Origin: Magnetococcales bacterium
GTDB lineage: Bacteria; Pseudomonadota; Magnetococcia; Magnetococcales; JADFZT01
Assembly (NCBI GenBank): GCA_015232395.1
Contig: JADFZT010000050.1
Coordinates: 1-35,999 of the forward strand
Reading direction: 5' to 3'
Length of the DNA stretch: 35,999 nucleotides
The translations under genes and the position numbers were made by a program. This document shows positions 4,189 to 31,084 of the stretch, in pieces. Every line of letters starts with the position of its first letter. Within the stretch, counting starts at the first letter, position 1. Under the pieces are notes generated by a model. That model was not told the DNA's origin, did no database searches, and was given only the letters and a program-made list of their open reading frames with translations.

Positions 4189-4216
4189 CGACAGGGAATT
4201 CGAAGGAGATGATGCA

Positions 4217-5364: not shown

Positions 5365-5387
5365 TCCTGTGCCATCATAAGGAATTG

Positions 5388-6740: not shown

Positions 6741-6977
6741 GGGGGAATCCCTTACCTATTTCCTTTGTGCGCCCATAATTCCTTTGATTCACCGTTCTTT
6801 CTTTCTGGTTACCCCCTCCCCGAACATCCTCGCCGCCTTCCGCCCCGCTGGAATCCTGGAATCCTGGAATCGGGGGACACCTTACCTATTTCCTTTATGC
6901 GCCCATAATTTCCTTGATTCACCGTTCTTTCTTTCTGGTTACCTCCTCCCCGAACATCCTCGCCGCCTTCCGCCCTG
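6741..6977 (+). repeat. Tandem ~130-bp repeat: integrase 3' end plus REP-like head
   Basis: Bases 6741-6847 are repeated at about 6871-6977. Each copy begins with the REP-like block (CTTACCTATTTCC then GCGCCCATAAT) and ends in the sequence coding for the integrase C-terminus. The right copy is the real 3' end of the integrase gene; the left copy is a duplicate without a gene. The REP-like head at 6867-6896 is the exact reverse complement of 1651-1680. No gene is supported between 6690 and 6918. Confidence 0.85.
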
Positions 6978-8061
6978 CCGTTCGATCCTCTTCTGGAATC
7001 CACCGCCCATACCGTTGCCTGATTAGCCCCCAATCCCGATGCCCCATCTGTTGCGCCACCCACAAGGGGCTTTCACCAGCTGAGAGCATCAATGAGGCGT
7101 AGGTGTGCCGGGTCTGGTAGGGATTGCGGTATCGGATGCCGGCTTTTTTGATGGCATGCTGCCAAGCGGTTTTGCGAATCTGGGCGTCGGTTTCCCAGGG
7201 TTGCCCGGTGCGGGGATTATGGAAAATTCGTTTGCCTTCCCGGAAGGTCTTCTCTTTCTGATTCTCCAAGGCCTCTACCGCCATGGGCAACAGCACCACC
7301 TCTCGCTTACCTGCCGCTGTTTTCGGCTCTTTGATAACCTTTCGCACCGAATTCCGCCGCACCCGGATCACACCTCGCTTCCAATCGATATCCAGCCACT
7401 CCAGGGCGATCAATTCCCCGGTTCGCAGTCCCGTCCAGAAGGCGAACTGAAAGAGGTTGCGGGCCTGATCAGGCAATTCTGCCAAAATGGCCCGCATCTC
7501 TTCCGGGGAGAATGGGTCCGGCTCTTCCCGTTGGATGGACAGATTGCGAATCCGGGCCATGGGATCCCGTTCAATCAAACCATCCGCAAAGGCGTCCTTG
7601 CACATCCCCCGCAACGGCACCAGCACATTGTAGATCCATTTGTTGGAAATACTAAGACCCCCCATCCAGGCTCGCACCTGGGCCGTGGTGAGATCCTGAA
7701 GCCGGACTGCGCCAAAAGCCGGTATCAGATGATAATGCACCGCGCTGTTGTAGTCCCTCCAGGTGGATGGGGCTGTAGTCCTTTGGATCGCTTCCAGGTA
7801 ACGGGTCAACGCCTCCTCAACCGTTATCCGCGTCTGCTGTACCCCACCAAACAGTACCGCCCGGGGAGAGTCCGGAAAATGTTCACGATAGTTGAAGGTG
7901 CCCTTTTCGATCTCTACCAGGATGGCGATGCGGAGATTGGCGGCATATCGAATATTGGTCTTGGTCAGGGGTAGTTTCAGCGTCTCCCGGCAACGGACGG
8001 ATTTATAAAAAAAATCGATCCGAATCCCATTCCCGTGGATATGCACCCCCTTGGGCAGCAT
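6919..8061 (-). CDS. int: Tyrosine recombinase/phage integrase
   Basis: This 380-aa integrase has an N-terminal arm-binding domain (IRIDFFYKSVRCRETL, residues ~10-70), a core-binding SAM-like domain (~80-165) and a catalytic domain (~185-370). Catalytic residues are visible: R213 in TGLRTGE, R318 in TRHTYAS, H341 in GHRDW and the nucleophile Y351 in RYGRW. Position I of the usual HxxR box is Tyr, a common variant. ATG 8061 is chosen because it sits in a TGATG junction with the excisionase-like gene. It probably integrates the element at the tmRNA gene, given the attachment site near 11858. The last codons lie in the repeat described at 6741-6977. Confidence 0.9.
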   Translation of the reverse strand: MLPKGVHIHGNGIRIDFFYKSVRCRETLKLPLTKTNIRYAANLRIAILVEIEKGTFNYREHFPDSPRAVLFGGVQQTRITVEEALTRYLEAIQRTTAPSTWRDYNSAVHYHLIPAFGAVRLQDLTTAQVRAWMGGLSISNKWIYNVLVPLRGMCKDAFADGLIERDPMARIRNLSIQREEPDPFSPEEMRAILAELPDQARNLFQFAFWTGLRTGELIALEWLDIDWKRGVIRVRRNSVRKVIKEPKTAAGKREVVLLPMAVEALENQKEKTFREGKRIFHNPRTGQPWETDAQIRKTAWQHAIKKAGIRYRNPYQTRHTYASLMLSAGESPLWVAQQMGHRDWGLIRQRYGRWIPEEDRTAGRKAARMFGEEVTRKKER

Positions 8062-8258
8062 CACGCGATCCCCAAGCGGCCTTCCACCCATTGGTTGAAC
8101 CCCTCCAGGCTGACTTGGATGCGGCCATCCGGCGATTTACACCACACCTTCCCCTCAGGCCATTTGCCTTGGTCGATCTACTCCCGCAACGCCTTTTCGG
8201 TGTATCCGGTCAATTCAGCCATTTTAATCAAGGTGATCCAGCGAATATTCACATTCAT
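8061..8258 (-). pseudogene. xis: Excisionase-like gene with in-frame amber codon
   Basis: From ATG 8258 the frame reads WITLIKMAELTGYTEKALRE, then a TAG at 8180-8178, then IDQGKWPEGKVWCKSPDGR and an amphipathic end, with TGA at 8063-8061. This is the pattern of small winged-helix excisionases (TGYTEKAIRxKIxxGxWxEG then PDGRI). The amber codon stands where Lys or Glu is usual and falls inside the helix-turn-helix. The downstream end is joined to the integrase by a TGATG overlap. Either the gene is dead, the base is an error, or the codon is suppressed. Confidence 0.7.
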
Positions 8259-8283: not shown

Positions 8284-9540
8284 TCAGGCCGCCTTGCCGA
8301 TCATTCGACGTAAAGCCAACCCCTTTTCCACCTTCTGATATAAATCCCCCTCCGTCAGCCCTTTTGATCGGTAACTGATAAGCAATTCCTCATAAAAGCC
8401 AGCCTTTTTGAAATGGGCGACAGCCTTGGAAGCCTTGAGCCCCTGTCGGGCAAATATGGTGATCAGGTTGCCCACCACCATGCTCAGGTTGTGGTCAATG
8501 GCCGTCACATCTGCTTTTCTTTTTCGTCGGATGGTGACCCCTGTAGCCGGGGTTAAAAACGCAACATCTTCCATGAGCAGTTGCCAAAAGGGATCGATAT
8601 AGACGCTGTTTTGATCCAAGCGATTGCGCCGAAGACCATAGCGCCAAATATCGGTGAGATGCCTGAATACCTGTTTCCAGGTAAGCAAAGGTTTCCCAAG
8701 CCCCCTGCCGATGTCCTTAATAACCCTCTGATGAAAGCGCAATTCCACCCGCCACACCGGGGATTTCGGGTCAAATTTATCGCCAGCTTCCTCTTTCCAA
8801 AGGGCATGAAATTCATCCACCTTGTCATCCTTGATGAGAGCCAAATCCTTTCGGTAAACGCACACCTGAAGGGCATTGGGCTTTCCAAAGGTAATGGTCT
8901 CAGTATTGCCATAGGTCACGGCCACTTTGGAGAGAGTTTCAAATTTGGCCTTAATGATGCCATCATGACGGCGTTGGACACTTGCATGGGTGACAAAACG
9001 ATCTTGAAAATCCTTGGGAAAGATCCAGTTCTGCACATCCACCGCCAGATGGACCGCAACCCCGGCTGGTTCTGCTTCTTTCAACAGCCAATCTGCTATT
9101 TTGTCCAGGCTGTTTTGCAAATCATCTACACTCTGCTGACGGATGGCATGCGGCGAGACCTCAATTTTCAAATGGCTGCCTTTTTTGTCCACGGTGGTGT
9201 AGTAGCTCCGGAAGAGCAAGACCAATCCCCTGGACTTGTTTTGCAGTTTGATGAGATAGCCGGATGCCTTACCCATTTTGGCGAGATGCCAGACCCCAAA
9301 TTCACCAAGATCAATAATTTCCTGCCCTGCCTCTATGGCGTTCAATAAAAACTCCAATATCTGCAGCCGAATAATGCCCTGGTATATCGGGCGCAGGGTA
9401 TCCGTGGTGGCTGCAAGAATCAGAATTTTGGTCAGATCATCCAACCCAACGCCGGTGAACAAGGATCCCTTGGGATCACCCTGGTCTCCAAGTGATAGGC
9501 TTCCCAGGCTATGGCGAGGATGAAATTTTCCTTTTCCCAT
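8284..9540 (-). CDS. Replication initiation protein (Rep_trans-like)
   Basis: This 418-aa protein resembles replication initiation factors of rolling-circle plasmids and phages (Rep_trans type). It has a strand-rich middle (LKIEVSPHAI, VAVHLAVDVQNWI), then YGNTETITFGKPNALQVCVYRKDLAL, and a following WRVELRFHQRVI segment, the order typical of this family. The catalytic Tyr was not assigned with certainty. ATG 9540 is preferred to TTG 9552 because GGAGA lies 6 bp before it. It lies between the integrase and a long inverted repeat, so it may drive autonomous replication of the excised element. It appears full length. Confidence 0.6.
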   Translation of the reverse strand: MGKGKFHPRHSLGSLSLGDQGDPKGSLFTGVGLDDLTKILILAATTDTLRPIYQGIIRLQILEFLLNAIEAGQEIIDLGEFGVWHLAKMGKASGYLIKLQNKSRGLVLLFRSYYTTVDKKGSHLKIEVSPHAIRQQSVDDLQNSLDKIADWLLKEAEPAGVAVHLAVDVQNWIFPKDFQDRFVTHASVQRRHDGIIKAKFETLSKVAVTYGNTETITFGKPNALQVCVYRKDLALIKDDKVDEFHALWKEEAGDKFDPKSPVWRVELRFHQRVIKDIGRGLGKPLLTWKQVFRHLTDIWRYGLRRNRLDQNSVYIDPFWQLLMEDVAFLTPATGVTIRRKRKADVTAIDHNLSMVVGNLITIFARQGLKASKAVAHFKKAGFYEELLISYRSKGLTEGDLYQKVEKGLALRRMIGKAA

Positions 9541-9742
9541 GACGTTCTCCAATGTGGATCAAAGTGGATTAATGCCCCTGACTATTCTGTTTTAGGTGGG
9601 TGTTACAGGAACCCACTGGTGCAACTTCAACCGCCGCCCCCTTCGCGCGGCTCGGGGACTCGCCGGGCTGCGGGTGCGGCGGTTTCGTTCTACAGATCGA
9701 TCCGGAACCAACATAGTCAGTCCGGAATTTCCAGCCGCCTTC

Positions 9743-12212: not shown

Positions 12213-15200
12213 TCACATCGCTCTGGAAATTCGTTCCCGCAGGTCTGGCAAGGGAGTTACCTTCAGATAGCGTTCCCCCTGCCTGGTTAGACTCCTGCCT
12301 GCCGAGGAGGTCACAATCAGGCCTAGACGTACCAAATATTCCGCCGATTCCACGAAGTCCTGTTGGTGAGCCAAACCGAGACCCTGACGTAGGGTGGCTT
12401 CAGAAGAACTGCCGTGTTGTTTCAGATAATTCAAGAACCGTAGGGCCAGATTATCGAGCCCATTGGCATCCACACCTTGGCTCTCATAGAAATCGGCAAT
12501 GTTCTCACGGGTCATGATCTTCGCCGTATCCTTAAGGGATGGCTCATGATTACCTTCTTGGAGTATTCTGCTGAAAAAATGTGGCAACAGGGTTTCGCTC
12601 AACTCGCGAACACTCCTGCGAGGGTTACAGCGATTGCGGGCGGCGATTTCATAACATGCATCCATGGTAAGTTCCGCACCGTCCAGGCATTTTTTTCCAT
12701 GCAGCCAGACAATCCCAGCCATCTCATGGAGGGTATAAGGTTGGAGCCAAGTTTTGTTTGGTCGGCTTTGGAATGCCTCGCTCAGCCTGCCAGGATCGGT
12801 TGTAGCCAACAAAAGGACTACTTGGTTGAAGTCATAAACATGACCGTCAATTGTGGTGACGCGGCTATCATCCATTGCTGAAAGGAGAACGTTCAAAACA
12901 TTGGTAGAAATGCCATGTACTTCATCAATGAACAGTAAACACGGGGGAATAAGAATCGTATCTCCTGAAGTTGATTCAGGTAAAATTCCTCCTTGGTTGA
13001 GACGATTAACAAGGTCGGATGGACGTCGCAAGTCAGACCCATTGAAGAATAAAGGTTCACAATTCAGCAGCATTGCACCTATTTTGCGCGCTAAAGTACT
13101 TTTCCCGACACCTGCCGGCCCGACGAGTAATTTATCAGAAAAGCGCTTTTTGGTTTTCTTGGCGAACACGGCCTGCTCAACCAGCCGGGCAACGGCCTCG
13201 TCCTGTCCAATCATCTCAAGCTTGTTGACAGGAGGCGGCCATGCTTTATTCTGAGTTTTGTCACTCACCAGTGGTGATGCCGTACTCCCCATGAATCTGG
13301 GCGTTGTTTGTTCCGTTTCTGGTCTTTGTATGCCTGAATTCCCAGACGAGCCAGTTGCTGATTGAACTGGTTCCTTTGAGAGTTGGGTCGATGTGGATTC
13401 CATCCCCATATCGGCGAGAGGCGTCTGGGATTTCCCTCCTGAAGGTGTGGACCCAGCATCTGGACCAGGTAGTTCACTGGGTTCCCACTCAAGCAATTCG
13501 CCCACCTCACGTTCACCCAGAACCCTATGAACAATGAGGTTGTCACCATCGGAGGCAATCTGTTCCTCCAACCCAACGGCCGCTCTACGCAAGAGGACGC
13601 TCACGATACAACCACTCAATAGGACCGCTGGGGATGTGTTTTCGCCTTGCCCGAAAAGCCGCATCAGCCAAGAGCCCCAACGAATGCGGTTTACTCTGTC
13701 CAGTGAAGGGTTACCAGAACGAGCCTGGGCTGCGCGGGCCAAAGTTTGTTTCAACATTTCACAGCGGGGAATGGAGAGAGGTGATGTTTGTCCATCCCCT
13801 GCCGCTCCCAGTCCGTCGGCGATCGCATTCAATGTGTTGCCAATCTGATCCACAGCGTGCGCCAAACGAGTTGACGCATTGCTGAGAAGCTTTTCATCCG
13901 AGGACTTGACCTCTACGGCAATCAACTCGAACACTGATGTCGAAGTATTTTCCCACATCACCAGGAGGTCACACCGTTCCGCCAGGGACCGCACCCCAGA
14001 CCGCAGCCATAGGCGTGCAAGAGGGTGATCAACGGAGATTACCAATGCCCCAGGATATCTGCGCTGTATGTCTCTTGCCGCGAACAGTAAGCCAGCAAGA
14101 CCAATGACCTTTTTTTGGTCTGGCTGGCCATCCTGTGTCTTGATGATTTCCAGAAGACCACTGCCCAACAAACGGGCACCTTGATGCAACAAGCGTTGCA
14201 TGGCGACAGGCGAAAGGGTGAGATTGCAACGGCTGAAGACGGGTCTAAGCAGGCGAGCCAGAGTTCCAAAGTCGCGAGTGGCCAAGAACGTATCGCGCAA
14301 TCCCTCTCGACGTTCCCAAATGCGGACCGATTGCATCCCCGCCTCGGAGGGCAATGCCCGGTCAGCAAGGAACAGCCATCGAGTCGCAGGTCGATCCCCC
14401 TGCAGAAGAGCGTCAGCTGTGTCGGCCAGTCCTTCCGCGTCGGCATAAACCTGAATGGTGCCATCACGCTGGCTGCCATCCAGTTCATTCATGAGTTGCA
14501 AGAATTCGCTGAACGGGGAATCCCCCGGCTGGGGGCGCAGGTCTATCCTTCCTGACCGATGGTCCACCTGCACATCATAGCGAACGCAAAAAGGGCTCAT
14601 TGGCAATACCCGGCTTAGAGCCTGCTGTCGTAGTCGTATGGTGGATTCGTCAAAGATGGCCACCAAATGGCTTGGGCGTTCCCTCAGTTGCTCAACCACC
14701 GATCCGAGACTGGTTGAGCCGGTCAACCCATCGTCATGGAGACGAAACTGGAGTCGGTCAAGAGCCACTTTCTCCTGGATGTCATCTTCTTTGCGGGTAT
14801 CCTGAAAGCGAAGAGCGCCATGTAAGCGATCGCGATGTTGGCCACTGGCGTATAAATCGAGATGCACTGCGGATAGCTTTTGTCCGCTTCGGTAACGATG
14901 ATCATTGAGTAAACGTACGACCTCCATGATCAAGTCCTCACCCCGTGGAGGATTTACCAATGCTACCCTCAGGGGATAGGGGTGATTTGGGTGCAGTAGG
15001 ATAAACTGCTCCAGAGCCTTTTTTAGGGTTTGAGCGCCATCTGACCCTGAACAAGCGTTGCTCAGGTTTTCAAAAACGGGCAACCCCTCGATCTGGCTTG
15101 TGTACGGGAGCATCTGACTTAACCCAAGACCACCAGGAAGGGTTGAAAGCCGAACTACAGAGAGAAATTGTTCTGGACGTTCTAGCTCTTTCCAAACCGT

Positions 15201-16964
15201 TTCGCGTTCGTCACTCCCCATAGAGGTGCTTTGGGCCAGCCCACGCAACAAGGTGGATAGCCGTTCATTGCGCCAGATGTGAAGCGGGTGGGTTGGAAGC
15301 AAAACGGCCTTGGCAAGATGCTTCCCCTCTGTCTGCAGTACCCGGATCTGTACGATGTCCAATGCCAACAAGGCTTCCAGGGCTGCCCGGGCCCAATCAG
15401 GGCTGTTGGATGCCATAACCCGGTAGTGTTCCTGGGTTTCACGGTACAGGGTGGCTGCCAGATCCAGGTAGCGCCGGACTTGCTCAAGGACTTGCGGGCG
15501 TCCATCCAACCAGTGCCGAGGGTGGTAGATCAACTTTCCAAGGTGCGGTAACAATTCAGTACGTAGCGCACTGAAATCCCGCCATGTTTGAGCCAACGTG
15601 GTCGTAGCCCCAACCAAATCTGGAAGGTCTTCATCCCAGGCCGTCAGGATGGACTCAAGGGATAAGGTTTCCCCCTCAATAACCACGATGGATTGGGGCT
15701 TAAGAAAAATTGGCGACTGATCCGCCATTCCGGTAAGAGCGGCCCGCACAGATGTTTCGGAAGTCTCGAAGAATCCTCCCCAATTGGTTTCGTTGCAGAA
15801 ATCTCCGACCCACTCCAAAACGTCAGTGGCAATGGCCATTTTTTCATGAACTGACTGCCCGCTTCCTGGCAAAGTGGCCGTCAGTTCAACCTCATTATCT
15901 CCGTTCTTATCCCGTTCTTCCCAGGCTTGATCAATTGCGTCGGCAATTGATTTCAGGTCATCCTCTCGGCCATCAAGCAGCGCATCAGATGACTCCTTGG
16001 AAAACGAGGGAGTATCCTCGGTGTCTCTATCTTCTGCCTCCTGTTCATCGTTTTCATCTTCGAGGATAGTCGGTATTTTCTCGTCCTTTGGTGGCTTGAC
16101 CACCACCAAAGCTTGTGACAAATCGAGTGGCGCATCCTGTCCACGCTGAAGGGAACTGAGATAGTGTTCAACCGCTGCTACTGCCTCCGCCACCAAGCGC
16201 TGTTTTTCTGCGTCCCGATAACGCTTGCCAGCCAAGGTGTGAAGGATCGAAGAACGAAGCGTTTTTACTCTCTGTGTTATTTCCAGATTGAGTTTTAGTC
16301 TCTGTCCCAGATTGTTAGCCCCAAATAGGTTTTCGTCGGTCAAGAGACCAAGGGACTTCAGTGCATGTCGTGGCGCATCATTGCCTTTGGAGACCCGAAG
16401 TTCATCCCAATGGGCTAGGAATCCTGCGCACGACTCCAAAGACAACAAGGGTTCCAAGTCGCGATCTTCTACAAACGCAGAGAGCAATACACGGTGCACG
16501 TCAGGTGAATTCGGTGCTTGGATCGGCAGCTTGATGCAGGCATCCTCGAGCAAGGCGGTCGCCAGATCCGTACTCGAAGGACGAGCATAATGTTTTAGAG
16601 TATGGACTCCGGCATTGTAACCCGAGGCAAGAACAATGGCTCTCGGGTGATTTTCACGGTCGTTTCTCCATTCTGCAGCCAAGTGAAGATCATCGGCAAA
16701 TGCGCGGATTTCCTTCAATCCCGCTTTCCTGGCAAGTTCTCCCATATCCACCGGAGTAACGCCATGTCCAGAGATGGCAATGGAAAATTGTGAGGCGATA
16801 TCATTGAATGCAGGATACTCCGCCAACTCGTGGAATAGAATGCCAACGTCCAGTGGGGGCAAACCTTCACAGGCAAAATCGTTATCAACCTGGAGGCGTC
16901 CCGCAATCCAACGGGCAATAGCGACAGCAGTGTAACCCTTGGCATCCATTAGGATCATCTTCAC
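12213..16964 (-). CDS. Giant nuclease/AAA+ protein of a candidate defence system
   Basis: This 1583-aa protein has an N-terminal region (1-300) of unknown fold, an acidic linker (~295-360), and a long central region with LLPTHPLHIWRNERL near 555 that recalls DptH-like proteins. Residues ~945-1022 carry a PD-(D/E)xK nuclease-like pattern: D999 in ERCDLLVMWE and E1018/K1020 in IAVEVKSS. After a Ser/Pro/Thr linker (1160-1240) comes a RuvB-like AAA+ domain: IGQDEA, Walker A GPAGVGKST (1282-1290), Walker B LLFIDEVHG (near 1347), LLLATTDPGRL and an arginine-rich SRPNKTW region. A winged-helix-like tail follows. The start is a GTG in a GTGA overlap with the previous gene. It probably acts on DNA; an exact family was not recognised. 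Confidence 0.72.
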   Translation of the reverse strand: MKMILMDAKGYTAVAIARWIAGRLQVDNDFACEGLPPLDVGILFHELAEYPAFNDIASQFSIAISGHGVTPVDMGELARKAGLKEIRAFADDLHLAAEWRNDRENHPRAIVLASGYNAGVHTLKHYARPSSTDLATALLEDACIKLPIQAPNSPDVHRVLLSAFVEDRDLEPLLSLESCAGFLAHWDELRVSKGNDAPRHALKSLGLLTDENLFGANNLGQRLKLNLEITQRVKTLRSSILHTLAGKRYRDAEKQRLVAEAVAAVEHYLSSLQRGQDAPLDLSQALVVVKPPKDEKIPTILEDENDEQEAEDRDTEDTPSFSKESSDALLDGREDDLKSIADAIDQAWEERDKNGDNEVELTATLPGSGQSVHEKMAIATDVLEWVGDFCNETNWGGFFETSETSVRAALTGMADQSPIFLKPQSIVVIEGETLSLESILTAWDEDLPDLVGATTTLAQTWRDFSALRTELLPHLGKLIYHPRHWLDGRPQVLEQVRRYLDLAATLYRETQEHYRVMASNSPDWARAALEALLALDIVQIRVLQTEGKHLAKAVLLPTHPLHIWRNERLSTLLRGLAQSTSMGSDERETVWKELERPEQFLSVVRLSTLPGGLGLSQMLPYTSQIEGLPVFENLSNACSGSDGAQTLKKALEQFILLHPNHPYPLRVALVNPPRGEDLIMEVVRLLNDHRYRSGQKLSAVHLDLYASGQHRDRLHGALRFQDTRKEDDIQEKVALDRLQFRLHDDGLTGSTSLGSVVEQLRERPSHLVAIFDESTIRLRQQALSRVLPMSPFCVRYDVQVDHRSGRIDLRPQPGDSPFSEFLQLMNELDGSQRDGTIQVYADAEGLADTADALLQGDRPATRWLFLADRALPSEAGMQSVRIWERREGLRDTFLATRDFGTLARLLRPVFSRCNLTLSPVAMQRLLHQGARLLGSGLLEIIKTQDGQPDQKKVIGLAGLLFAARDIQRRYPGALVISVDHPLARLWLRSGVRSLAERCDLLVMWENTSTSVFELIAVEVKSSDEKLLSNASTRLAHAVDQIGNTLNAIADGLGAAGDGQTSPLSIPRCEMLKQTLARAAQARSGNPSLDRVNRIRWGSWLMRLFGQGENTSPAVLLSGCIVSVLLRRAAVGLEEQIASDGDNLIVHRVLGEREVGELLEWEPSELPGPDAGSTPSGGKSQTPLADMGMESTSTQLSKEPVQSATGSSGNSGIQRPETEQTTPRFMGSTASPLVSDKTQNKAWPPPVNKLEMIGQDEAVARLVEQAVFAKKTKKRFSDKLLVGPAGVGKSTLARKIGAMLLNCEPLFFNGSDLRRPSDLVNRLNQGGILPESTSGDTILIPPCLLFIDEVHGISTNVLNVLLSAMDDSRVTTIDGHVYDFNQVVLLLATTDPGRLSEAFQSRPNKTWLQPYTLHEMAGIVWLHGKKCLDGAELTMDACYEIAARNRCNPRRSVRELSETLLPHFFSRILQEGNHEPSLKDTAKIMTRENIADFYESQGVDANGLDNLALRFLNYLKQHGSSSEATLRQGLGLAHQQDFVESAEYLVRLGLIVTSSAGRSLTRQGERYLKVTPLPDLRERISRAM

Positions 16965-18325
16965 AGTAGGTGGTCAGGGTTCAAGGAAAACAGCACAAGT
17001 CCATCTGATGGTTCCCATGCCAGACCAAGGTGGACAGCCAACTGCTTGAACGCCTCCCGATTGGCTTGAAGATCGGAGTCCTCGTCAAGTGGAGTGTATC
17101 CGTGCTGAAGAAGGGTGGCGTGGTCCTTTGGAAGCAACCCGAGAACAAGGTTCCAGTGTCGTCGCAGTCGCTCCGCCAGTTCATCCATGGTACACACCTC
17201 ATTGGGTTCTAATACGCTCATCAGCAAAACGCGCATGGTGTCGGGTTGGGGACGGAAGTATTTGAATGGTGTCCCTGTACGAGGTTGAACCCAACCAATC
17301 CGCACTGAAAAATCCCTGAAATGGTCCTCAAGATCCTTGGATGCCTTGACCCCAAGCTTACTGAAAGCTTCATAATCTTCTGTTGATACGCCACTTGGGT
17401 TGGATTCCATCCAGAGGTGGAGACTACGCCCAAACAGTCCCAACTGCCTCGAATAACATGCTGCCGACTGAGCCCGCAGGCGAGATCTCGTTTCACCGGT
17501 AAAGTCACAAAAGAATATCGTCTGATCGCAGTTGACGATGCGACGAATTTGGTAAACCAGCAGCCATGAGCCAAGGCCCAGCACCAGATGACGCAAAGCG
17601 AAGGCCGTGGGATGATGCTGCAGGTTGCCGGCTAGCTTTCGCAAAGCTTCCGTCTGATGTCGCATCAAGTCACTGCTGGATTTCAGAAAGCCTAAAGGTG
17701 GACTGCCACAGAGGTCGGACAAATCCTGGGCATACTCTTCGGTGGAATCATCAATAAGGGGTCTGCCAAACATGGCGGCAGGGCTGGTGGCGTTATCAGC
17801 AATTTTCCGAGCCAGAGACAGGAAATCCTTTCCCGGACGACTGACGTCCAATACCAACCAAGCAAAAGCGCCGGCATTGCCATGGTTCTTGGATTGGTTG
17901 GAAAGGAACTCCATAGAAGGCATGCTGTAGTCACACCCAAAGGTCGAATAGGGAGTAAAAGCCGCTCCAAGTGCAGCGCCATCATTATTAAATGCGGCGT
18001 TAAGATGTTGGCGGAGTAGCTTAAATTCCTCCATTTTCAGTTTGGACGAGAGAATCTCCTCAGAATCGTCCTGCAAGAGCGGGAAAAGGTTTTCGGCAAC
18101 GTATTCATCTTCTGGCGCACGTTCTGTGGCTTTAGGATTTGCAGTCTTGTTGAGCCATTCGAGCCGTCGATAACGACGGCACAGCGCCAGTAAAAAGCTG
18201 GTGGCAAAATGGACAGGCTTCATGCGCATAGGAAGGTAGCCGAGGGACATGCGTTGAAGGTGTGTGACCTTCTGTCTGTCCACCTGCTTCACTTCTCCGC
18301 TACGCGTGTTTGGTGATGCGTTCAT
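16961..18325 (-). CDS. Middle protein of the three-gene system (DptG-like position)
   Basis: This 454-aa protein has no membrane segment and no catalytic motif that I can recognise. It has a helical middle with AFAWLVLDVSRPGKDFLSLA and a Leu-rich segment (ALRHLVLGLGSWLLVYQIRRIV), then a C-terminal part that may be a winged helix (TMDELAERLRRHWNLVLG). It overlaps the upstream gene by 26 bp and the downstream gene by 4 bp, so all three are made together. In size and place it corresponds to DptG in dptFGH operons, but I see no clear sequence match, so an adaptor role is only inferred. Confidence 0.55.
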   Translation of the reverse strand: MNASPNTRSGEVKQVDRQKVTHLQRMSLGYLPMRMKPVHFATSFLLALCRRYRRLEWLNKTANPKATERAPEDEYVAENLFPLLQDDSEEILSSKLKMEEFKLLRQHLNAAFNNDGAALGAAFTPYSTFGCDYSMPSMEFLSNQSKNHGNAGAFAWLVLDVSRPGKDFLSLARKIADNATSPAAMFGRPLIDDSTEEYAQDLSDLCGSPPLGFLKSSSDLMRHQTEALRKLAGNLQHHPTAFALRHLVLGLGSWLLVYQIRRIVNCDQTIFFCDFTGETRSRLRAQSAACYSRQLGLFGRSLHLWMESNPSGVSTEDYEAFSKLGVKASKDLEDHFRDFSVRIGWVQPRTGTPFKYFRPQPDTMRVLLMSVLEPNEVCTMDELAERLRRHWNLVLGLLPKDHATLLQHGYTPLDEDSDLQANREAFKQLAVHLGLAWEPSDGLVLFSLNPDHLL

Positions 18326-21300
18326 ATTTTTTCATATCCTGAGTCAACTGGACTTCCAACAATTCTCGGCGTTCCAAATGGGCCGAAAAAATTCGACGGT
18401 CCTCCAAGGCACTTGAGGCATCCAATGCTTCAACAAAGGATTCCAGTCGGAAAGCGTCCCTCTCCGGGAGCAGTTTTCGGGGCAGTCCTCTCCGGAGGCG
18501 TTGCAATGTTCTAAACAACGGAAAGTCTACTCGCAGTTTGGCAACGTGACCATTGGATGATGCATGCTGTAACAATAAATGGTCCGGTTGATACCCTGGA
18601 ATTGCTTTCAATACCCGCAGTGGAATTCGTGGTTTGAACAAGCGAAGCTGGGTCAAAGGGATGGATCGGTTCGCGAGAAACGATCGGGTTGGCTGTTCAT
18701 GGAACCGATGTCCGCTCCACAGGTAGAGGTTATCTTCGCAACCTGGGAAATTCCGAGGACAGAACGCTCGATTGATTGCTTGGATCAGTCGGCGCTTAAC
18801 GATAGAGTCATCATCCTGCTCCACTCGCATGAGATTATAAAAATCGGTGGAATCGGCATCCTCCAACTCAAAAGCCTTGTCACCATTGTTGTGCTCAAAA
18901 TAGAAGGTGCGTTTCAATGCCTGGAATTCCTTTAGATCCGGTCGGACCGTTACTCCGATGCTGGGAACGCCAAACCACCACCCAGATTCCAGAATTTCTG
19001 CCCGATCTTCCAATAACGCATCCCACAGTGGGTGGCTCTGTGCCGCTGGATCAGTGTAGGTTAGGGTCTCGGCAAGGCAAAAACGCGGGTCGCGCATGAA
19101 CATGATGTCCGAATACCGATAATCCAAGCCATCTCCATAGGATGGAGACAGGTCAACCCGACACCCAAGAACCAACCGCGCCAAGAGGATCCATAACTCC
19201 CTCATGGTCGTCCGGGAACCAATTGCAGCAAGCCTGTCAAATAGTGCAAGCAGACGTTTCCGTATTCGGTCATCTCGAAGCCGCTCCAGGTTTTGCTTGA
19301 GCATGGGGGCAACCTCGGGAGACGTCTGATCAAGATCCGGATCTGACAATAGACGATCCAGCATGGAACCGGCGATCCGGCTGTTTAGAGGATTCCTCTG
19401 GCTCAAGTCAATGACGAGGAGGTTCTTTCCATCTGACTCCGCCTCGGTTTCTGGACCGTAGACGAGTCGGTTGCGACACTGACGATCCAGTTCCTCTGCT
19501 TGGGAAGGCAACGCCTTTTTGGCGGCTGCTCGCAGCAGGTGCAAGGGGTATTCATTGATGGCGATGCAGAAGGGAACCTGGGATGAGACGGCCTCGCGCC
19601 AGCGGTCAAGCACCGGAGCAATTTTCCCCCTGCGCATGGTAGCGGTAGCATCTTCAACGACAATCGCCCCATGAGCGCGCAGTTCGGGGGCAGTCCTTTT
19701 GAGGACGTGCGTCTTTCCATCTCCCGCATTGCCAGTCAGAAACAGACTGAACCCTTTGCTGACGGCATCCTTAATGAAATCTTCCACGTCAAGTTTAACA
19801 TGCAATCGCTCAAGCTCTGACTCGGACAGGGAATCGGAAGTGACGTTGGCTCCAGATTGGGCAAGCTGCCTCCAAAAAGCCAAAGCCGGGGATGCGGGTT
19901 GGACTGATTCGGTAACCACCACCTCTGATATTGGACCGGTTGAATCGACCACGGCAGCAGGCTCCTCACTCAAAGAGGGAATCCGATCGCTCAGCTTCCA
20001 TTTCCCAGCTGTTAAGACGGCCATCATGCTGGGAACATGCCGCATTCTGGAAACGAGCCAACGTGTTGTCCAAAAATCAGCGATTCTCTTTGTTGTATCC
20101 TGAAACTTCTGTGGCTGTAAAATGTAATCGGCGAGTGTGACAGAACGGTTATTGAGAAAATCAACAGCATGGGGGGACAATGCGGTCACGTAGATCAGGC
20201 GCTGCCTGTTATGCCGCATCAGAGAATCGGGTGAAAAACCCAACTCACGCAGCCCTGCTGCCAAAAGTCGCAGCTTTGGACTTGGCCCTTCTCCAAAGAT
20301 GCTGTTGACATCTTTGAACCCACGACGACTTTTTAAAAATATTTCCACTGCTTGACGGGTTTCATTCATGAACTGCAAAGTCCCAAAACCGGCAGTAAGA
20401 CCAAGCTTCCTAAAGCGTAACTCCTTCTGATCGGGGGAGATGATTCCAGAAGGTAATTTTACCCGTTCGTATTGGCTGCTTCCCTGGGCATAAAGACTGG
20501 TGGTGCTCAAATAGACCAGGGCATTTTCACGGCGTACTTCAGCATTTTTTATCTGGGAAGAAATGATGGACGGACCGGAATACTGCTTTTGGTAGTCAGC
20601 CGCGATTTGTGGTGAATACAACAGCAAGGCGGCAAGCTTCCCGCCCAGGATATGGTTGTAGGGTGGTATGGCCCCGCAAGTGCTGATCTCAAGGATATTA
20701 ATGCCTGCGAATCGACTCTTCAGGGCATCAAGAATCGTCTGCAGCGCAACCCCAACGTCCTCCTGCCCAAGGGTCGCTTTCAGGTTGTCTGGGTCGGTCA
20801 AACCAGCATGATGAGAACGTAAGGTAAGACGGGACTGAAGAAGAGCAGCCAAAAGAGCCGCACGCTTTCGGGCCACCAAATGTCTCCGGGCCTTCTGCAT
20901 CGTCGGATTTTTTGCTGGCTTTGCTTCAAGATTCAGGATTTCCTCAGCAACAGGTGGGTGATCCTCGCCGATGTCTGTCTCATCCGCCTCAACCGGAAGG
21001 AGCGGACCATCGTTGCCTGAGCGCAACCGCGCCAACTCCCTCAGAGTTTCATCCCGTAGATGATCGAACTCCTGCGCCTTACGCCTCAGCCTAGCAATCA
21101 CGGTCGCATTGGGCTGTTCAATTTCCTCCGGTTCGACCAGCCCCTTTGCCTCAATATCTTCGATGGTCGCCGCAAGTTGGACTTCCAGCCATGCGTACTC
21201 CTCTGCCAATTTCTCACTGCTGTTAGTGTTAAGAAGTCGCTCGGTGAGGGCGCGCAAACTCCAACCTAGATCATATTCGCGTTCCACACCCATCTGTAAT

Positions 21301-22025
21301 GCCGTGTTATTAAGCCCGATAATACCCATAACGGCGTGACAGGGGTGTGCCGCATCCCGAACCAAATAGAGTAACTGTCGACCTGGCGTTGAAAACTGAG
21401 GGATGGACCACGTAAAGCGAAAATAGCGCCAGATCTCACGAAGCGATAGACCGGTATATTCATCGACTTCTTCTGGAGTGGCCAATTGTAGGTATGGTCG
21501 AACAGGAGGTGTGGGAGAGACTTTTTCCCCATTGGAGCCCTGCTTGAAGGCGAGTAGACGAGCATGAAGTTCCGCGCCTTCTGCGATCAAAAGGGTGATC
21601 GGCTTCTTTCCAGTTTTTGGCCCAGGTTCATCCATACGTTTGGCAAAAACACGCACTGTCGGGTCGCTGAGTTGGGCTTTAACTGCTGGAAGGAATATTG
21701 CCCTAGTTTTCTGTTTCTCCTGTTGGATTGCCTTCGGATCCAGACCATGGGTCCTGGGGGGGGCAGCGTACAACTCGACGCCATATCCTTCCTCTCGAAC
21801 CTGCCAACCTAACCGCTCCAAGTCAAACATCACGCGAACAGCGGCCTCAAATGCAAGACGCTGATCCTCAAGTGATATATGCGAACTCGCCCATTCCAGC
21901 TCCGACGCAAGAAGGGCCATGCGATCCTCTTCATCCTTGGGTGCGGCACGGGCCAGTGTTCGGGCCAGAGCAAGAAATCGATCGGCAGCGGAGCCTTCCA
22001 AATTTGCGCGAATAGGAACTATCAT
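18300..22025 (-). CDS. DruA-like (DUF4338) / P-loop ATPase fusion protein
   Basis: This protein is about 1241 aa if it starts at ATG 22025. Residues ~190-540 resemble the DUF4338 domain of DruA. LLYLVRDAAHPCHAVMGIIG and the DLGWS segment come first. After a long helical insertion come NHILGGKLAALLLYSP and VYLSTTSLYAQGSSQYERV, then GLTAGFGT. Residues ~755-1000 are a P-loop ATPase with Walker A GNAGDGKT (765-772), a CIAINEYPLHLL segment and LLVIDLSQRNPL, in the order seen in DptF. The C-terminal ~200 aa have no recognised domain. The start is uncertain: AGGAGGT lies 40 bp upstream and longer frames exist. It is the first gene of the operon. Confidence 0.65.
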   Translation of the reverse strand: MIVPIRANLEGSAADRFLALARTLARAAPKDEEDRMALLASELEWASSHISLEDQRLAFEAAVRVMFDLERLGWQVREEGYGVELYAAPPRTHGLDPKAIQQEKQKTRAIFLPAVKAQLSDPTVRVFAKRMDEPGPKTGKKPITLLIAEGAELHARLLAFKQGSNGEKVSPTPPVRPYLQLATPEEVDEYTGLSLREIWRYFRFTWSIPQFSTPGRQLLYLVRDAAHPCHAVMGIIGLNNTALQMGVEREYDLGWSLRALTERLLNTNSSEKLAEEYAWLEVQLAATIEDIEAKGLVEPEEIEQPNATVIARLRRKAQEFDHLRDETLRELARLRSGNDGPLLPVEADETDIGEDHPPVAEEILNLEAKPAKNPTMQKARRHLVARKRAALLAALLQSRLTLRSHHAGLTDPDNLKATLGQEDVGVALQTILDALKSRFAGINILEISTCGAIPPYNHILGGKLAALLLYSPQIAADYQKQYSGPSIISSQIKNAEVRRENALVYLSTTSLYAQGSSQYERVKLPSGIISPDQKELRFRKLGLTAGFGTLQFMNETRQAVEIFLKSRRGFKDVNSIFGEGPSPKLRLLAAGLRELGFSPDSLMRHNRQRLIYVTALSPHAVDFLNNRSVTLADYILQPQKFQDTTKRIADFWTTRWLVSRMRHVPSMMAVLTAGKWKLSDRIPSLSEEPAAVVDSTGPISEVVVTESVQPASPALAFWRQLAQSGANVTSDSLSESELERLHVKLDVEDFIKDAVSKGFSLFLTGNAGDGKTHVLKRTAPELRAHGAIVVEDATATMRRGKIAPVLDRWREAVSSQVPFCIAINEYPLHLLRAAAKKALPSQAEELDRQCRNRLVYGPETEAESDGKNLLVIDLSQRNPLNSRIAGSMLDRLLSDPDLDQTSPEVAPMLKQNLERLRDDRIRKRLLALFDRLAAIGSRTTMRELWILLARLVLGCRVDLSPSYGDGLDYRYSDIMFMRDPRFCLAETLTYTDPAAQSHPLWDALLEDRAEILESGWWFGVPSIGVTVRPDLKEFQALKRTFYFEHNNGDKAFELEDADSTDFYNLMRVEQDDDSIVKRRLIQAINRAFCPRNFPGCEDNLYLWSGHRFHEQPTRSFLANRSIPLTQLRLFKPRIPLRVLKAIPGYQPDHLLLQHASSNGHVAKLRVDFPLFRTLQRLRRGLPRKLLPERDAFRLESFVEALDASSALEDRRIFSAHLERRELLEVQLTQDMKKYERITKHA

Positions 22026-23385: not shown

Positions 23386-23826
23386 TCACACAGCAAAGGA
23401 CAATTGCCCTTCTCCTGCCGATTTCGCCATTCCCCAGTGCCTGCGTTGCTCTTCCCATGCCACTGGAAACTGAAGCCGCATTTTTTCCACCGACAGGGAT
23501 TCCGGCTGCCGCCCCTCCAGTATCGCCTCAACGATATCGGGGGCCAGCAGGGTAAGGCGCAGGGTGCGGGCCACATACGAGGGATCGATCTTTTCTCTGG
23601 TCGCCAGATCCTTCACCGACGCCGCCTGTCCGCTCTCCATCATCTCCTGCCAGCGAAAGGCCCGGACCAGGGCGCGGATCAATGCCTCATCGGGCCGGGT
23701 TGGCGGTAGGAAAGCGGACTCGACTCCCTCCGGGGCGATGATCTCCTTGCGACCGCCGGTGCGGCGGAAACGATATGGGATGCGGATGACGATGGTCTTG
23801 CCATCGCTGGCGAGTTTCATGTTCAT
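23386..23826 (-). CDS. Helix-turn-helix partner of the serine recombinase
   Basis: This 146-aa protein has a strand pair at the N-terminus (KTIVIRIPYRFRRTGGRKEI) and a helix-turn-helix-like middle (SVKDLATREKIDPSYVARTLRLTLLAPDIVEAIL, residues ~75-110), followed by GRQPESLSVEKM. It resembles the small protein that regularly follows recombinase/DUF2924 pairs in alphaproteobacterial genomes. The middle resembles ParB-type HTH. It overlaps the recombinase stop by 4 bp. Its role may be in recombination directionality or DNA binding, which is not established. Confidence 0.65.
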   Translation of the reverse strand: MNMKLASDGKTIVIRIPYRFRRTGGRKEIIAPEGVESAFLPPTRPDEALIRALVRAFRWQEMMESGQAASVKDLATREKIDPSYVARTLRLTLLAPDIVEAILEGRQPESLSVEKMRLQFPVAWEEQRRHWGMAKSAGEGQLSFAV

Positions 23827-25163
23827 GCGGCGATCTCCTTATTGCCAAGATCCCGGGCCAGGGTCTCCAGCCCTTCACCTCTGAGGCGTACCTCGATTTC
23901 ATTCATGTTGACCGTTACCCGGTCCACCAGAAGCTGCACCAAGCGGTGTTGTTCGCCGGGAAAGAGTGCCTCCCAAACCGGCTCCAGACTTTGCAGCGCC
24001 TCGATGATCTCCCGTTCGGTAACCCAATCCTCATCAATCTTAGCCGCTTTCCAGGTTTTGGCCACCATCTCCGGCGTCCGGGTCAGAGTCTGCAACTGGC
24101 CCAAGACGATCCCCTCAATTTCTCGGGCCGCCACGGTTTTCAGCGGACAGGCGTCGTGGCCATTTTTCAGGGCGTTCTGGCAGGTATAATAACGGTAGAG
24201 CCGCCCGCCCTTGCGCGTGTGGCTTGGTTTCATGGCCCGACCGCAGGATCCGCAGCGCAGGATTCCCTTGAGGGGCGCGGCGGTTTGGGCGCGGGTGCGG
24301 TTGGCGCGCCGGGGGGCGTTGATCTCCAGAATGGAGTGAACCCGGTCCCAATCGGTCTTATTGATGATCGCCTTGTGCTCCCCGGGATAGGATACCTCCT
24401 TGTGGACCGCTTCGCCGATGTAAACACGGTTGTTGAGGATCTTGAGTAGGGTTCCCTTGTTGAAGGGTTTTCCGCCCCTTGATTTGCCGGAAGTGGTGAC
24501 CCAGGATTTACTCTGATGGCCTGCCTCTGCCAACTCCTGGGTTAAGGTGGTGGTGGAGCCGATCTGGATGTAGCGTTTGAAAATATGCCGGACCAGATCC
24601 GCCTCGGCGTCGTTGATGACCAGTTTGCGGTCCTGGACGTCATATCCCAGCGGCGGGTGGCCGCCCATCCAGATGCCCCGTTTCCGGGAGGCGGCAAACT
24701 TATCCCGGATTCTCTCGGCGGCAAGCTCTCTTTCAAATTGCGAGAATGAAAGTAAAATGTTGAGCGTTAGCCGCCCCATGGAACTGGTGGTGTTGAAATG
24801 CTGTGTCACGCTGACGAACGTGACCTTGCCCCGCTCGAAAATCTCCACCAGCTTGGAGAAATCCATCAGGGAGCGGGTCAGGCGGTCGATCTTGTACACC
24901 ACCACGCAGTCGATGCGGTCTGTTTCGATATCGGTCAAAAGCCGCTTCAGCGCCGGTCGCTCCAGGCTTCCACCGGAAAATCCGCCGTCGTCATAACGGT
25001 CCGGGACCGGGGTCCATCCCTCTGCCTTCTGGCTGGCAATGTAATTTTCGCAGGCCTCCCGCTGAGCATCGAGGGTGTTGAACTCCATGTCCAGTCCCTC
25101 GTCGGTGCTTTTTCTGGTGTAAATGGCGCACCGCACCTTGGGTTTAACCTGCTGCCTTTTCAT
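23823..25163 (-). CDS. Large serine recombinase
   Basis: This 446-aa protein has an N-terminal resolvase domain with the catalytic Ser in YTRKSTDEG (S19) and the R-rich VVYKIDRLTRSLMDF region. It then has a recombinase domain (~165-300) and a zinc ribbon (LRCGSCGRAMKPS with a later YTCQ and ACP, residues ~300-350) and a helical end. Large serine recombinases integrate and excise prophages or mobile elements at specific attB sites. It overlaps DUF2924 (upstream) and the helix-turn-helix gene (downstream) by 4 bp each. Confidence 0.93.
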   Translation of the reverse strand: MKRQQVKPKVRCAIYTRKSTDEGLDMEFNTLDAQREACENYIASQKAEGWTPVPDRYDDGGFSGGSLERPALKRLLTDIETDRIDCVVVYKIDRLTRSLMDFSKLVEIFERGKVTFVSVTQHFNTTSSMGRLTLNILLSFSQFERELAAERIRDKFAASRKRGIWMGGHPPLGYDVQDRKLVINDAEADLVRHIFKRYIQIGSTTTLTQELAEAGHQSKSWVTTSGKSRGGKPFNKGTLLKILNNRVYIGEAVHKEVSYPGEHKAIINKTDWDRVHSILEINAPRRANRTRAQTAAPLKGILRCGSCGRAMKPSHTRKGGRLYRYYTCQNALKNGHDACPLKTVAAREIEGIVLGQLQTLTRTPEMVAKTWKAAKIDEDWVTEREIIEALQSLEPVWEALFPGEQHRLVQLLVDRVTVNMNEIEVRLRGEGLETLARDLGNKEIAA

Positions 25164-25612
25164 TGATCCCCTCCGTTGCCGTGGCGGCGGACCCCAAAAA
25201 ACGTCCAGCCGTTCCAGCGCGTCCCGGTAATTGCCCGGGCCACCGCCGACAGGCTGCGGAAGGGCCGTCCCTGGTATTCAAAACCGTCGGCCAGGACCGT
25301 TACGCAGTAGTCGATTCCCTTCCATTCCCGAATCAGACGGGTGCCAACCACCGGTCTGCCGTCTCCTTTGGGTTGATTGCGCCCGATCTGCGTTTCATCC
25401 CTGGCCAGCGTCTTCAACCGCTCCTCCGTCTGTTTCGACAGCCCGCCATAGGCCAACTCCTGAAGCCGGTATGCCAGTCGTTTTACCAGAAACTGTTTGG
25501 CGTATGGCGGCGGGTCGGCGTCGAAAAGCTCCTGCCACATCTCTTTCAGCCTGGTGGTGGTCATGCCCGGAAGGGCGGCCACCTGTTTGATCACATCCGT
25601 TTTCGCCATCAT
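25160..25612 (-). CDS. DUF2924 protein
   Basis: This 150-aa protein matches DUF2924: LPGMTTTRLKEMWQELFDADPPPYAKQFLVKRLAYRLQE at the start, GTRLIREWKGIDYCVTVLADGFEYQGRPFRSLSAVARAITG, and GTRWNGWTFFGVRR at the end. The family is nearly always next to a serine recombinase and may help it recognise DNA. Two adjacent ATG codons (25612, 25609) are possible starts. It overlaps both neighbours by 4 bp. Confidence 0.92.
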   Translation of the reverse strand: MMAKTDVIKQVAALPGMTTTRLKEMWQELFDADPPPYAKQFLVKRLAYRLQELAYGGLSKQTEERLKTLARDETQIGRNQPKGDGRPVVGTRLIREWKGIDYCVTVLADGFEYQGRPFRSLSAVARAITGTRWNGWTFFGVRRHGNGGDQ

Positions 25613-25812
25613 GGTCTGCCTCCAAAATTGGTTTGTTCTTCAGACACATAAGGGCATTGGCCGGGCGGTTTATCCAGTCGAAAAGTCTCTGAATTACCTG
25701 TTTTTGTTCTCTTTTTTATCCGAAAGCGCAGGATGCCGACGGCCAGGATGGCGGCGGCCTCATCCAGGCGCTCGGTGGCGGTCAACAGATTTGGATCACA
25801 GCCGTTGGTCAT
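25609..25812 (-). CDS. Small protein upstream of DUF2924
   Basis: This 67-aa protein begins TATERLDEAAAILAVGILRFRIKK after a short N-terminus and has a basic middle and Pro-rich tail. Similar short proteins often precede DUF2924/recombinase genes. Function unknown. The 4-bp overlap with DUF2924 and the shared strand support it as a real gene. Confidence 0.6.
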   Translation of the reverse strand: MTNGCDPNLLTATERLDEAAAILAVGILRFRIKKRTKTGNSETFRLDKPPGQCPYVSEEQTNFGGRP

Positions 25813-25916
25813 GGAAAATCATCCTCATTCGGGTGGGGCGTGATGACGCCCCTTTCTCTGAAATACCGGAACGAGGAGAAAAACGTCGGGCACAATCCAA
25901 GTCATATAAATTTTTC

Positions 25917-25944
25917 TTGCGGCGCTTTTGACTCCTGATATAGA
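25917..25944 (+). promoter_or_regulatory. Possible promoter of the LexA-like repressor gene
   Basis: TTGCGG at 25917-25922 and TATAGA at 25939-25944 are 16 bp apart, about 45 bp before the GTG start. The divergent region 25813-25991 probably holds the switch controlling both arms of the prophage. Confidence 0.35.
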
Positions 25945-25991
25945 TTAGGTCCATTCGCCTGATTGTGGGGCCAACTTTGTGAGGGAGTATT

Positions 25992-26651
25992 GTGAACAGG
26001 GATGATCCAAGCCGTTCCGGCCCCAAGCCGGTGGAAGGGCTGACGGGAGCGCAGGAACGCCTGATGGCAGCGATCCAGGCTTTCATTGACGAAAAAGGCA
26101 TGCCGCCGACCGTGCAGGAAATGGCCGATGCCCTGGGTATCAAGGGAGCTACGGTCCATGAACAGATCGGCAAGATTGCTCGGAAGGGTTATTTGAAGAG
26201 AACGCCGCGCAAGGCGCGGTCATTGGAAATCATACGGCGGCCCCCATCTGTTTCCCGGCTTGTGCCGGTCTCCATTGTGGGAAAGGTGGCCGCCGGACTG
26301 CCGATATTCGCCACGGAAAATCATGTCGGTGAAGTTCTGGTGGAGTCGAATGTGGCTCAGGGACGCTGTTTTGCCCTGGAAGTACAGGGCGACAGCATGG
26401 TGGAAGCGGATATCCATGAAGGGGATATTTTGATCGTCCGCCAACAGCCGCTGGCAGAAAATGGAGATATCGTCGTGGCCCTCCTAGAGGATGAGGCCAC
26501 CGTCAAACGGCTTTTCATTTCCGGAGATCGGATCGAGTTGCGGCCTGCCAATGCGGCATATGCCACCATTCTGATTGCTCCGGATGATGATCTCAAAATT
26601 ATTGGGAAGGTTCTGGCTGTTCGTGGCCGGGCCAAAGATTTTGACGATTGA
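25992..26651 (+). CDS. LexA-family self-cleaving repressor (prophage)
   Basis: This 219-aa protein has an N-terminal winged helix (LTGAQERLMAAIQAFIDEKG through ALGIKGATVHEQIGKIARKGYLKR, residues ~17-70) and a C-terminal S24 peptidase domain. The self-cleavage site is in VAAGLP (A101-G102). The catalytic Ser is in GDSMVEADIHEGD (S135) and the Lys in ATVKRLF (K172). In a prophage setting next to the recombinase, this is likely the lysogeny repressor, responsive to RecA and DNA damage. The GTG start is preceded by GAGGGAG. It is transcribed opposite to the recombinase module. Confidence 0.85.
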   Translation: MNRDDPSRSGPKPVEGLTGAQERLMAAIQAFIDEKGMPPTVQEMADALGIKGATVHEQIGKIARKGYLKRTPRKARSLEIIRRPPSVSRLVPVSIVGKVAAGLPIFATENHVGEVLVESNVAQGRCFALEVQGDSMVEADIHEGDILIVRQQPLAENGDIVVALLEDEATVKRLFISGDRIELRPANAAYATILIAPDDDLKIIGKVLAVRGRAKDFDD

Positions 26652-26664
26652 GGGAGCGTCTGCC

Positions 26665-27879: not shown

Positions 27880-27900
27880 ATCATAAATTTGGATGAAAAA

Positions 27901-29031: not shown

Positions 29032-29039
29032 GATGAAAG

Positions 29040-30152: not shown

Positions 30153-30180
30153 TTTCCCCCACAATTTGACGTCATCTTTC

Positions 30181-30202: not shown

Positions 30203-30233
30203 CCATTTTCCAGCTATCCATTCAAGCGTTTCC

Positions 30234-31049: not shown

Positions 31050-31084
31050 ATACAATCAGGACCCAAGAGAAAAGGAGTCGAGCG

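What the first reader, a model, noticed from the sequence alone, without database searches (positions are those of the whole stretch)
12213..22025. Three-gene system combining DruA-like, DptF-like, nuclease and RuvB-like domains without Dnd or DruE genes
Seen: three minus-strand genes of ~1241, 454 and 1583 aa with overlapping ends. The first joins DUF4338-like motifs with a P-loop ATPase, and the last has a D...ExK motif plus a RuvB-like AAA+ domain. Established: DUF4338 defines DruA of Druantia, which works with a large DruE helicase; dptFGH works with dndABCDE phosphorothioation genes. Neither partner is in this window. Inference: this is a separate restriction-like system or a Dpt/Druantia hybrid.
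Basis: partly seen in the sequence, partly recalled or inferred. Interest (0 to 1): 0.88.

Follow-up and report, generated by a model that had tools for sequence, protein, structure and literature searches.

The report
Phage-defence complex with borrowed RuvB motor
Three overlapping genes encode what looks like a bacterial DNA-cutting defence complex of the DndFGH/SspFGH kind, in which the usual FtsK/HerA DNA pump has been replaced by a copy of the recombination motor RuvB, a swap not found in the literature searched and present in two classes of bacteria.

Summary
In detail: three overlapping minus-strand genes (1241, 454, 1583 aa) at 12213-22025. They are not an unrelated hybrid. Gene 1 is DruA (DUF4338) fused to a DndF/SspF core, gene 2 a DndG/SspG relative, gene 3 a DndH/SspH relative with its PD-(D/E)xK-type nuclease. 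Relatives in haloarchaea, Bacteroidota and virus-like contigs form the same DruA-F-G-H set, with no dnd genes annotated around the loci read. DUF4338-DndF fusions and stand-alone DndFGH were already described (PMC10853773). What appears new is the end of gene 3. Every DndH in that study, and nine relatives here, end in a HerA/FtsK motor; this one ends in a complete RuvB (AAA+ plus winged helix) lacking RuvB's RuvA-binding hairpin motif. The RuvB ending is conserved: seven genomes of one gammaproteobacterial order carry it, 67-71% identical to the window in the RuvB part although the linker before it is only 13-25% identical. Likely a stand-alone DndFGH-like restriction complex driven by a RuvB-type DNA pump. 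The genome has no DndC and no DruE-type helicase. Defence, self-recognition and motor activity are inferred, not shown. Verdict: a real, new variant of a known kind.

The parts
18300..22025 (-). Gene 1: DruA (DUF4338)-DndF/SspF fusion, 1241 aa (open frame from 22145)
   Evidence: Pfam DruA, PADLOC DruA1 and SspF/DndF matches; 57-65% identical homologues in G004 and G461, which align from residue 39-41
19971..21917 (-). DruA (DUF4338) domain of gene 1
   Evidence: PADLOC PDLC00001 E=1.9e-110, residues 77-725 of the 1281-aa frame; CGAIPPYNxxLGGKL and other motifs invariant
18303..19877 (-). DndF/SspF P-loop core of gene 1, Walker A GNAGDGKT, asparagine in place of the Walker B aspartate (AINEYPL)
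   Evidence: PADLOC SspF E=1.1e-13; alignment A2 of nine F cores
16961..18325 (-). Gene 2: DndG/SspG relative, 454 aa
   Evidence: PADLOC SspG E=6.4e-05 (C-terminal part), 8 of the 9 aligned proteins match SspG
12213..16964 (-). Gene 3: DndH/SspH relative with a RuvB ending, 1583 aa
   Evidence: Homologous over the first ~1150 aa to H proteins that match SspH at up to 6.9e-72; full-length homologues of 1545-1593 aa
13635..14174 (-). PD-(D/E)xK-type nuclease region of gene 3 (residues 931-1110; D979, D999, E1018, K1020)
   Evidence: Invariant in ten aligned proteins across bacteria and archaea; predicted helix-strand pattern compatible but low confidence
13236..13469 (-). Variable linker (residues 1166-1243) between nuclease and motor
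   Evidence: 13-25% identity while nuclease and RuvB keep 66-71%
12216..13235 (-). RuvB domain of gene 3 (residues 1244-1583): AAA+, lid and winged helix; Walker A K1288, Walker B D1347, arginine finger SR, sensor-2 NPR, VDANGLD motif; RuvA-binding hairpin motif missing
   Evidence: PRK00080 RuvB E=3.3e-24 over positions 24-327 of 330; alignment with RuvB proteins; conserved in seven other genomes
23386..25163 (-). Neighbouring serine recombinase (23823-25163) and small recombinase-associated gene (23386-23826); probable mobility genes, not part of the complex
   Evidence: Pfam Resolvase/Recombinase/Zn_ribbon_recom, PHROG recombinase; homologues on both contigs that carry the cassette in G004

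Best explanation
This is a stand-alone anti-invader (phage or plasmid) restriction complex of the DndFGH/SspFGH type, here DruA-F / G / H, in which the C-terminal HerA/FtsK DNA-pump domain of DndH has been replaced by RuvB. Proposed working (inferred): G binds DNA; F, a nucleotide-binding sensor carrying DruA at its N-terminus, licenses the complex; the RuvB domains assemble a ring on double-stranded DNA and pump it through or past H, without RuvA; the nuclease domain of H then nicks or cuts invading DNA. The domain make-up, its conservation and the motor swap are shown by sequence. Complex formation, DNA translocation, cutting, phage protection and the way self DNA is spared are inferred.
For: DruA and SspF/DndF domains in gene 1, SspG in gene 2, H homologous to SspH-matching proteins. 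Same gene order in haloarchaeal plasmids and genomes, Hymenobacter plasmids and virus-like contigs, with FtsK as motor. Nuclease residues D979, D999, E1018, K1020 invariant in all. RuvB domain full-length with Walker A/B, arginine finger, sensor 2, LxVDxxGLD and winged helix, but lacking the IGxGPxAR hairpin of RuvB that contacts RuvA (the role of that hairpin is established knowledge). Found again in G461, G765, G761, G762, G760, G751 and G782 (gammaproteobacteria, class search and order search), RuvB part 67-71% identical against 13-25% for the linker. RuvB-type and FtsK-type H lie on opposite sides of one fully supported branch. No DndC and no DruE-type helicase in the genome. A serine recombinase and a companion gene adjoin, with homologues on both cassette-bearing contigs of G004, and the cassette's GC3 (0.53) differs from its neighbours (0.60-0.74): a mobile cassette. 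DndFGH and SspFGH restrict phage in published experiments (PMC8092258; reviewed in PMC10853773).
Against: No experiment. The closest relative (G004, same order, H 66% identical over its length) has an H that stops just before the RuvB domain, so only the window shows a full cassette on one contig in that class. In gammaproteobacteria the assemblies break inside the cassette; G was not recovered there and several copies are decayed. Direct profile matching of the window's H to SspH/DndH fails; the link goes through relatives at 22-24% identity. Structure models were too poor to confirm folds.
Confidence: 0.72

Rival explanations
1. The RuvB domain is there for its substrate, not for general pumping: it directs the nuclease to Holliday junctions or reversed forks that arise during phage recombination and replication, so the system attacks branched intermediates.
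For: Complete RuvB including the winged helix and sensor/finger residues; RuvB acts on Holliday junctions in cells (established knowledge).
Against: In cells junction specificity comes mainly from RuvA, and the RuvA-contact hairpin motif is missing here. FtsK-type relatives do the equivalent job with a plain double-strand pump.
Confidence: 0.15
2. The DruA half is the main effector or sensor, for instance as an acetyltransferase (GNAT fold, as PMC10853773 annotates DUF4338) acting on proteins, and the nuclease-RuvB protein is secondary.
For: DruA is present in every locus of this clade where the F region is preserved, fused or as a separate gene, so it is more than an occasional add-on. PMC10853773 calls the domain GNAT and suggests a co-effector role.
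Against: Nuclease residues are invariant in all H proteins aligned; DndFGH and SspFGH without DruA restrict phage (published). My DruA model was too weak to test the fold.
Confidence: 0.08
3. The cassette is a decayed or misassembled remnant, with RuvB joined to H by chance.
For: G004 H is truncated; some gammaproteobacterial copies are broken.
Against: One open frame of 1583 aa; the same join in seven other genomes with strongly conserved RuvB and variable linker; the domain is only about 26-31% identical to ordinary RuvB proteins, so it is not a chimaera with the chromosomal ruvB.
Confidence: 0.05

Closest known systems
SspFGH (partner of SspABCD phosphorothioation)
   Same: F, G and H subunits by profile match in this clade; nuclease and motor in H; overlapping three-gene unit
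   Different: DruA fused to F; RuvB instead of an FtsK-like motor; no phosphorothioation genes found (no DndC; one PAPS-reductase-family protein of 270 aa)
DndFGH/DptFGH, including stand-alone forms and DUF4338-DndF fusions (PMC10853773)
   Same: Stand-alone, DUF4338-DndF fusion, nuclease in H; Walker-B asparagine in F
   Different: PMC10853773 states that all DndH share a core ending in HerA/FtsK; here that domain is RuvB
Druantia type I
   Same: DruA domain (PADLOC DruA E=1.9e-110)
   Different: No DruE-type helicase in the genome (control) and none of the other Druantia genes found in the window
RuvB, Holliday junction branch-migration motor
   Same: Full-length AAA+ plus winged helix with the LxVDxxGLD motif
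   Different: Fused behind a nuclease; RuvA-binding hairpin motif lost; about 26-31% identity to ordinary RuvB

Membership tests
DndFGH/SspFGH | DndF/SspF core: P-loop with Walker A and asparagine at the Walker B position | tested here: met
   PADLOC SspF E=1.1e-13; GNAGDGKT and AINEYPL aligned and conserved
DndFGH/SspFGH | DndG/SspG subunit with three winged helices | tested here: inconclusive
   SspG match only over residues 328-441, E=6.4e-05; 8 of 9 aligned proteins match; fold not modelled
DndFGH/SspFGH | DndH/SspH N-terminal multidomain region | tested here: inconclusive
   Window H has no direct SspH/DndH hit but is homologous (BLAST E down to 1e-49) to proteins that do
DndFGH/SspFGH | Restriction-endonuclease domain in H | tested here: met
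   D979, D999, E1018, K1020 invariant in ten aligned proteins
DndFGH/SspFGH | C-terminal HerA/FtsK motor in H | tested here: not met
   RuvB instead; relatives in archaea, Bacteroidota and virus-like contigs do have FtsK
DndFGH/SspFGH | Phosphorothioation genes in the genome (not required in stand-alone forms) | tested here: not met
   No DndC match in the 99%-complete genome
Druantia | DruA (DUF4338) | tested here: met
Druantia | DruE helicase with MZB/DUF1998 region | tested here: not met
   No MZB match in the genome; MZB does detect the DruE-like helicase of L048
RuvB | AAA+ with Walker A/B, arginine finger, sensor 2, winged helix, LxVDxxGLD | tested here: met
RuvB | RuvA-binding beta-hairpin with IGxGPxAR | tested here: not met
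   Shorter, motif absent; also in the gammaproteobacterial homologues
Anti-phage defence system | Protects a host from phage or plasmids | not testable with these tools
   No experiment available here

The most novel reading that the evidence does not exclude
The motor position of DndH-type nucleases is an interchangeable socket: besides repeated HerA/FtsK capture, one lineage captured RuvB and freed it from RuvA, giving a restriction complex driven by a branch-migration motor that may preferentially attack recombining or replicating invader DNA. If so it would be a RuvB working outside its known RuvA partnership, in immunity.
Probability: 0.3. Interest if true: 0.8.

Novelty: new variant of a known kind. 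Interest (0 to 1): 0.62.

Why it matters
It separates what is essential in DndFGH-like systems (nuclease, F sensor, DNA-binding G) from what is exchangeable (the motor). HerA/FtsK and RuvB both encircle and pump double-stranded DNA but belong to different ATPase clades, so the swap argues that DNA translocation, not a specific HerA/FtsK localisation to segregation or packaging as proposed in PMC10853773, is the needed function. That makes an open question about DndFGH directly testable by domain swap. It also gives a RuvB that appears independent of RuvA, and shows DruA as a steady partner of an F-G-H system outside Druantia.

Tried and rejected
Chance or chimaeric join of RuvB: rejected after finding the same join in seven gammaproteobacterial genomes. 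Druantia membership: rejected, no DruE-type helicase. Phosphorothioation partner: rejected, no DndC; the single PAPS-reductase-family protein is 270 aa, shorter than the 447-position DndC model. Whole-H searches mostly returned ordinary RuvB and were replaced by N-terminal queries. Genome-collection scan gave only five loci from two poor patterns; viral-contig scans with H found nothing, with F found three loci. Zetaproteobacteria-like class (my guess at its identity): none in 78 genomes. Phage collection: no match to gene 1. AlphaFold models of H 1-1180 (mean pLDDT 49) and DruA (58) were too weak and the fold searches meaningless, so the GNAT reading of DruA and the domain list of DndH could not be checked. 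A direct profile comparison of this H with a canonical DndH-type protein was not significant as a score, though the D...W.R...D...ExK pattern lines up. Extra conserved neighbour genes: none apart from the recombinases. Literature on RuvB together with DndFGH or Druantia, and on DndH/SspH/DruA together: nothing relevant to the swap found.

Full report
OBSERVATION. The contig is the whole window (G000:C50). The cassette has GC3 about 0.53 against 0.60-0.74 in neighbouring genes.

WHAT THE GENES ARE. Gene 1 matches Pfam DruA (1.1e-28) and PADLOC DruA over residues 77-725 (1.9e-110); its C-terminal half matches SspF and, weakly, DndF. It keeps Walker A GNAGDGKT and has asparagine where Walker B has aspartate (AINEYPL), the feature PMC10853773 gives for DndF. 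Gene 2 matches SspG over its C-terminal part (6.4e-05), and eight of the nine aligned proteins match SspG. Gene 3 has no direct SspH or DndH hit but is homologous over about 1150 aa to proteins that do; D979, R984, W986, R997, D999, E1018, K1020 and Q1040 are invariant in the ten-protein alignment spanning haloarchaea, Bacteroidota and the window's own order.

THE KNOWN PART. Rakesh, Aravind and Krishnan 2024 (PMC10853773) showed that DndFGH is often decoupled from DndABCDE, that some DndF carry an N-terminal DUF4338 domain (which they call GNAT), and that DndH proteins share a core ending in a HerA/FtsK ATPase. I found DruA-F-G-H sets in haloarchaeal plasmids and genomes (DruA as a separate gene; the genes of L037 are broken up), two Hymenobacter plasmids and virus-like contigs (DruA fused in L040 and L052-L054), with an FtsK motor where H is complete. 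No dnd genes are annotated around the loci whose annotation I read. So neither the fusion nor the absence of dnd genes is new.

THE NEW PART. The last 340 residues of gene 3 are RuvB: NCBIfam RuvB E=3.3e-24 over nearly the whole model, with Walker A and B, arginine finger, sensor 2, the RuvB motif LxVDxxGLD and the C-terminal winged helix in place. The hairpin that carries IGxGPxAR in RuvB, and that contacts RuvA in the known complex (established knowledge), is about seven residues shorter and lacks the motif. RuvB does not occur in the text of PMC10853773 or of a 2026 BREX survey that builds on it (PMC12839542), and searches pairing RuvB with DndFGH or Druantia found nothing relevant.

IS THE JOIN REAL? 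A class search found a gammaproteobacterial genome (G461; its class is inferred from the sampling of the phylum) with a protein 60% identical over 1593 aa, RuvB included. An order search around it found matches in 8 of 40 genomes; seven of these (G461, G765, G761, G762, G760, G751, G782) carry the RuvB ending, the eighth only a 38-residue match. Against the window the RuvB part is 67-71% identical, the nuclease 66-69%, the linker between them 13-25% (six of the seven measured): the motor is under selection, not a chance join. In a tree of H without the motor, RuvB-type and FtsK-type proteins lie on opposite sides of a fully supported branch, consistent with a single swap (long branches, so the deeper order is unsure). 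DruA-F accompanies H in G461 (full length) and as fragments in G751, G762 and G782. Assemblies break inside the cassette there and G was not recovered.

PARTNERS. The 99%-complete genome has no DndC and no MZB-bearing helicase, although MZB does detect the DruE-like helicase next to another DruA (L048). It therefore appears to lack both the phosphorothioation modification and the Druantia helicase. How self DNA is spared is unknown; it is an open question for stand-alone DndFGH in general.

MECHANISM. HerA/FtsK and RuvB are both ring-shaped double-stranded DNA motors (established knowledge). Replacing one by the other suggests that what H needs is a DNA pump beside its nuclease. Proposed steps: DNA binding by G and the N-terminal part of H; licensing by F-DruA through nucleotide binding; RuvB ring formation and translocation without RuvA; cutting by the H nuclease. 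Only domain presence, residue conservation and the swap are shown; the rest is inference. The main rival is that RuvB was chosen for branched DNA.

MOBILITY. A serine recombinase with a small companion gene adjoins the cassette, and homologues of both occur on both contigs that carry the cassette in G004. A tyrosine integrase lies at 6919-8091.

LIMITS.

Noticed in passing
L038 1149-4928 and L065 (G004): The nearest relative of the cassette (H 66% identical) has an H that stops right before the RuvB domain; the DNA beyond looks like the 3' part of an unrelated gene (recognised by eye only), as if the motor end had been cut off by recombination.
   Followed up: partly
L066 (G017) and L068 (G248): Other stand-alone FGH loci in the same phylum carry NERD plus protein kinase domains, not DruA, in front of F; L068 has a HerA-type H. 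Fits PMC10853773.
   Followed up: partly
L047, L048 (Roseivivax, Leisingera plasmids): DruA preceded by an ATP-binding (HATPase in L048) protein on both plasmids, and in L048 followed by a 2094-aa MZB helicase and a NERD protein: a Druantia-like set.
   Followed up: partly
window 5385-6689 and 2485-5089: Caspase-like peptidase (Peptidase_C14, PADLOC caspase 6e-05) next to a histidine-kinase/GAF protein and a response regulator; possibly a second defence or signalling unit.
   Followed up: no
window 1520-1991 and 6742-6978: Families of ~50-100 nt direct repeats, repeated in inverted orientation about 5 kb away, around the kinase-caspase genes, the second cluster just beside the integrase gene.
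   Followed up: no
window 8284-9552 (-): 422-aa protein of unknown function matching phage family phrog_1159 (E 8.6e-97) beside the tyrosine integrase.
   Followed up: no
window 25160-35294: Phage- or element-like module: DUF2924, LexA-type repressor, DUF3800 protein, Sak4-like annealing protein, RadD/DNA-helicase-like protein.
   Followed up: no
L042 9887-10516 (Chromatiaceae MAG): Isolated fragment of an H gene (47% identical to residues 254-410) at a contig end, without G or F: a remnant.
   Followed up: partly
L085 9352-11700 (G782): Decayed cassette: F cut after about 135 residues, an HNH-like gene (by eye), then H from residue 706 with the RuvB end intact.
   Followed up: partly
window 2323-2397: ARAGORN reports a tRNA with an undetermined four-base anticodon (tatc); probably a false or decayed tRNA.
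   Followed up: no
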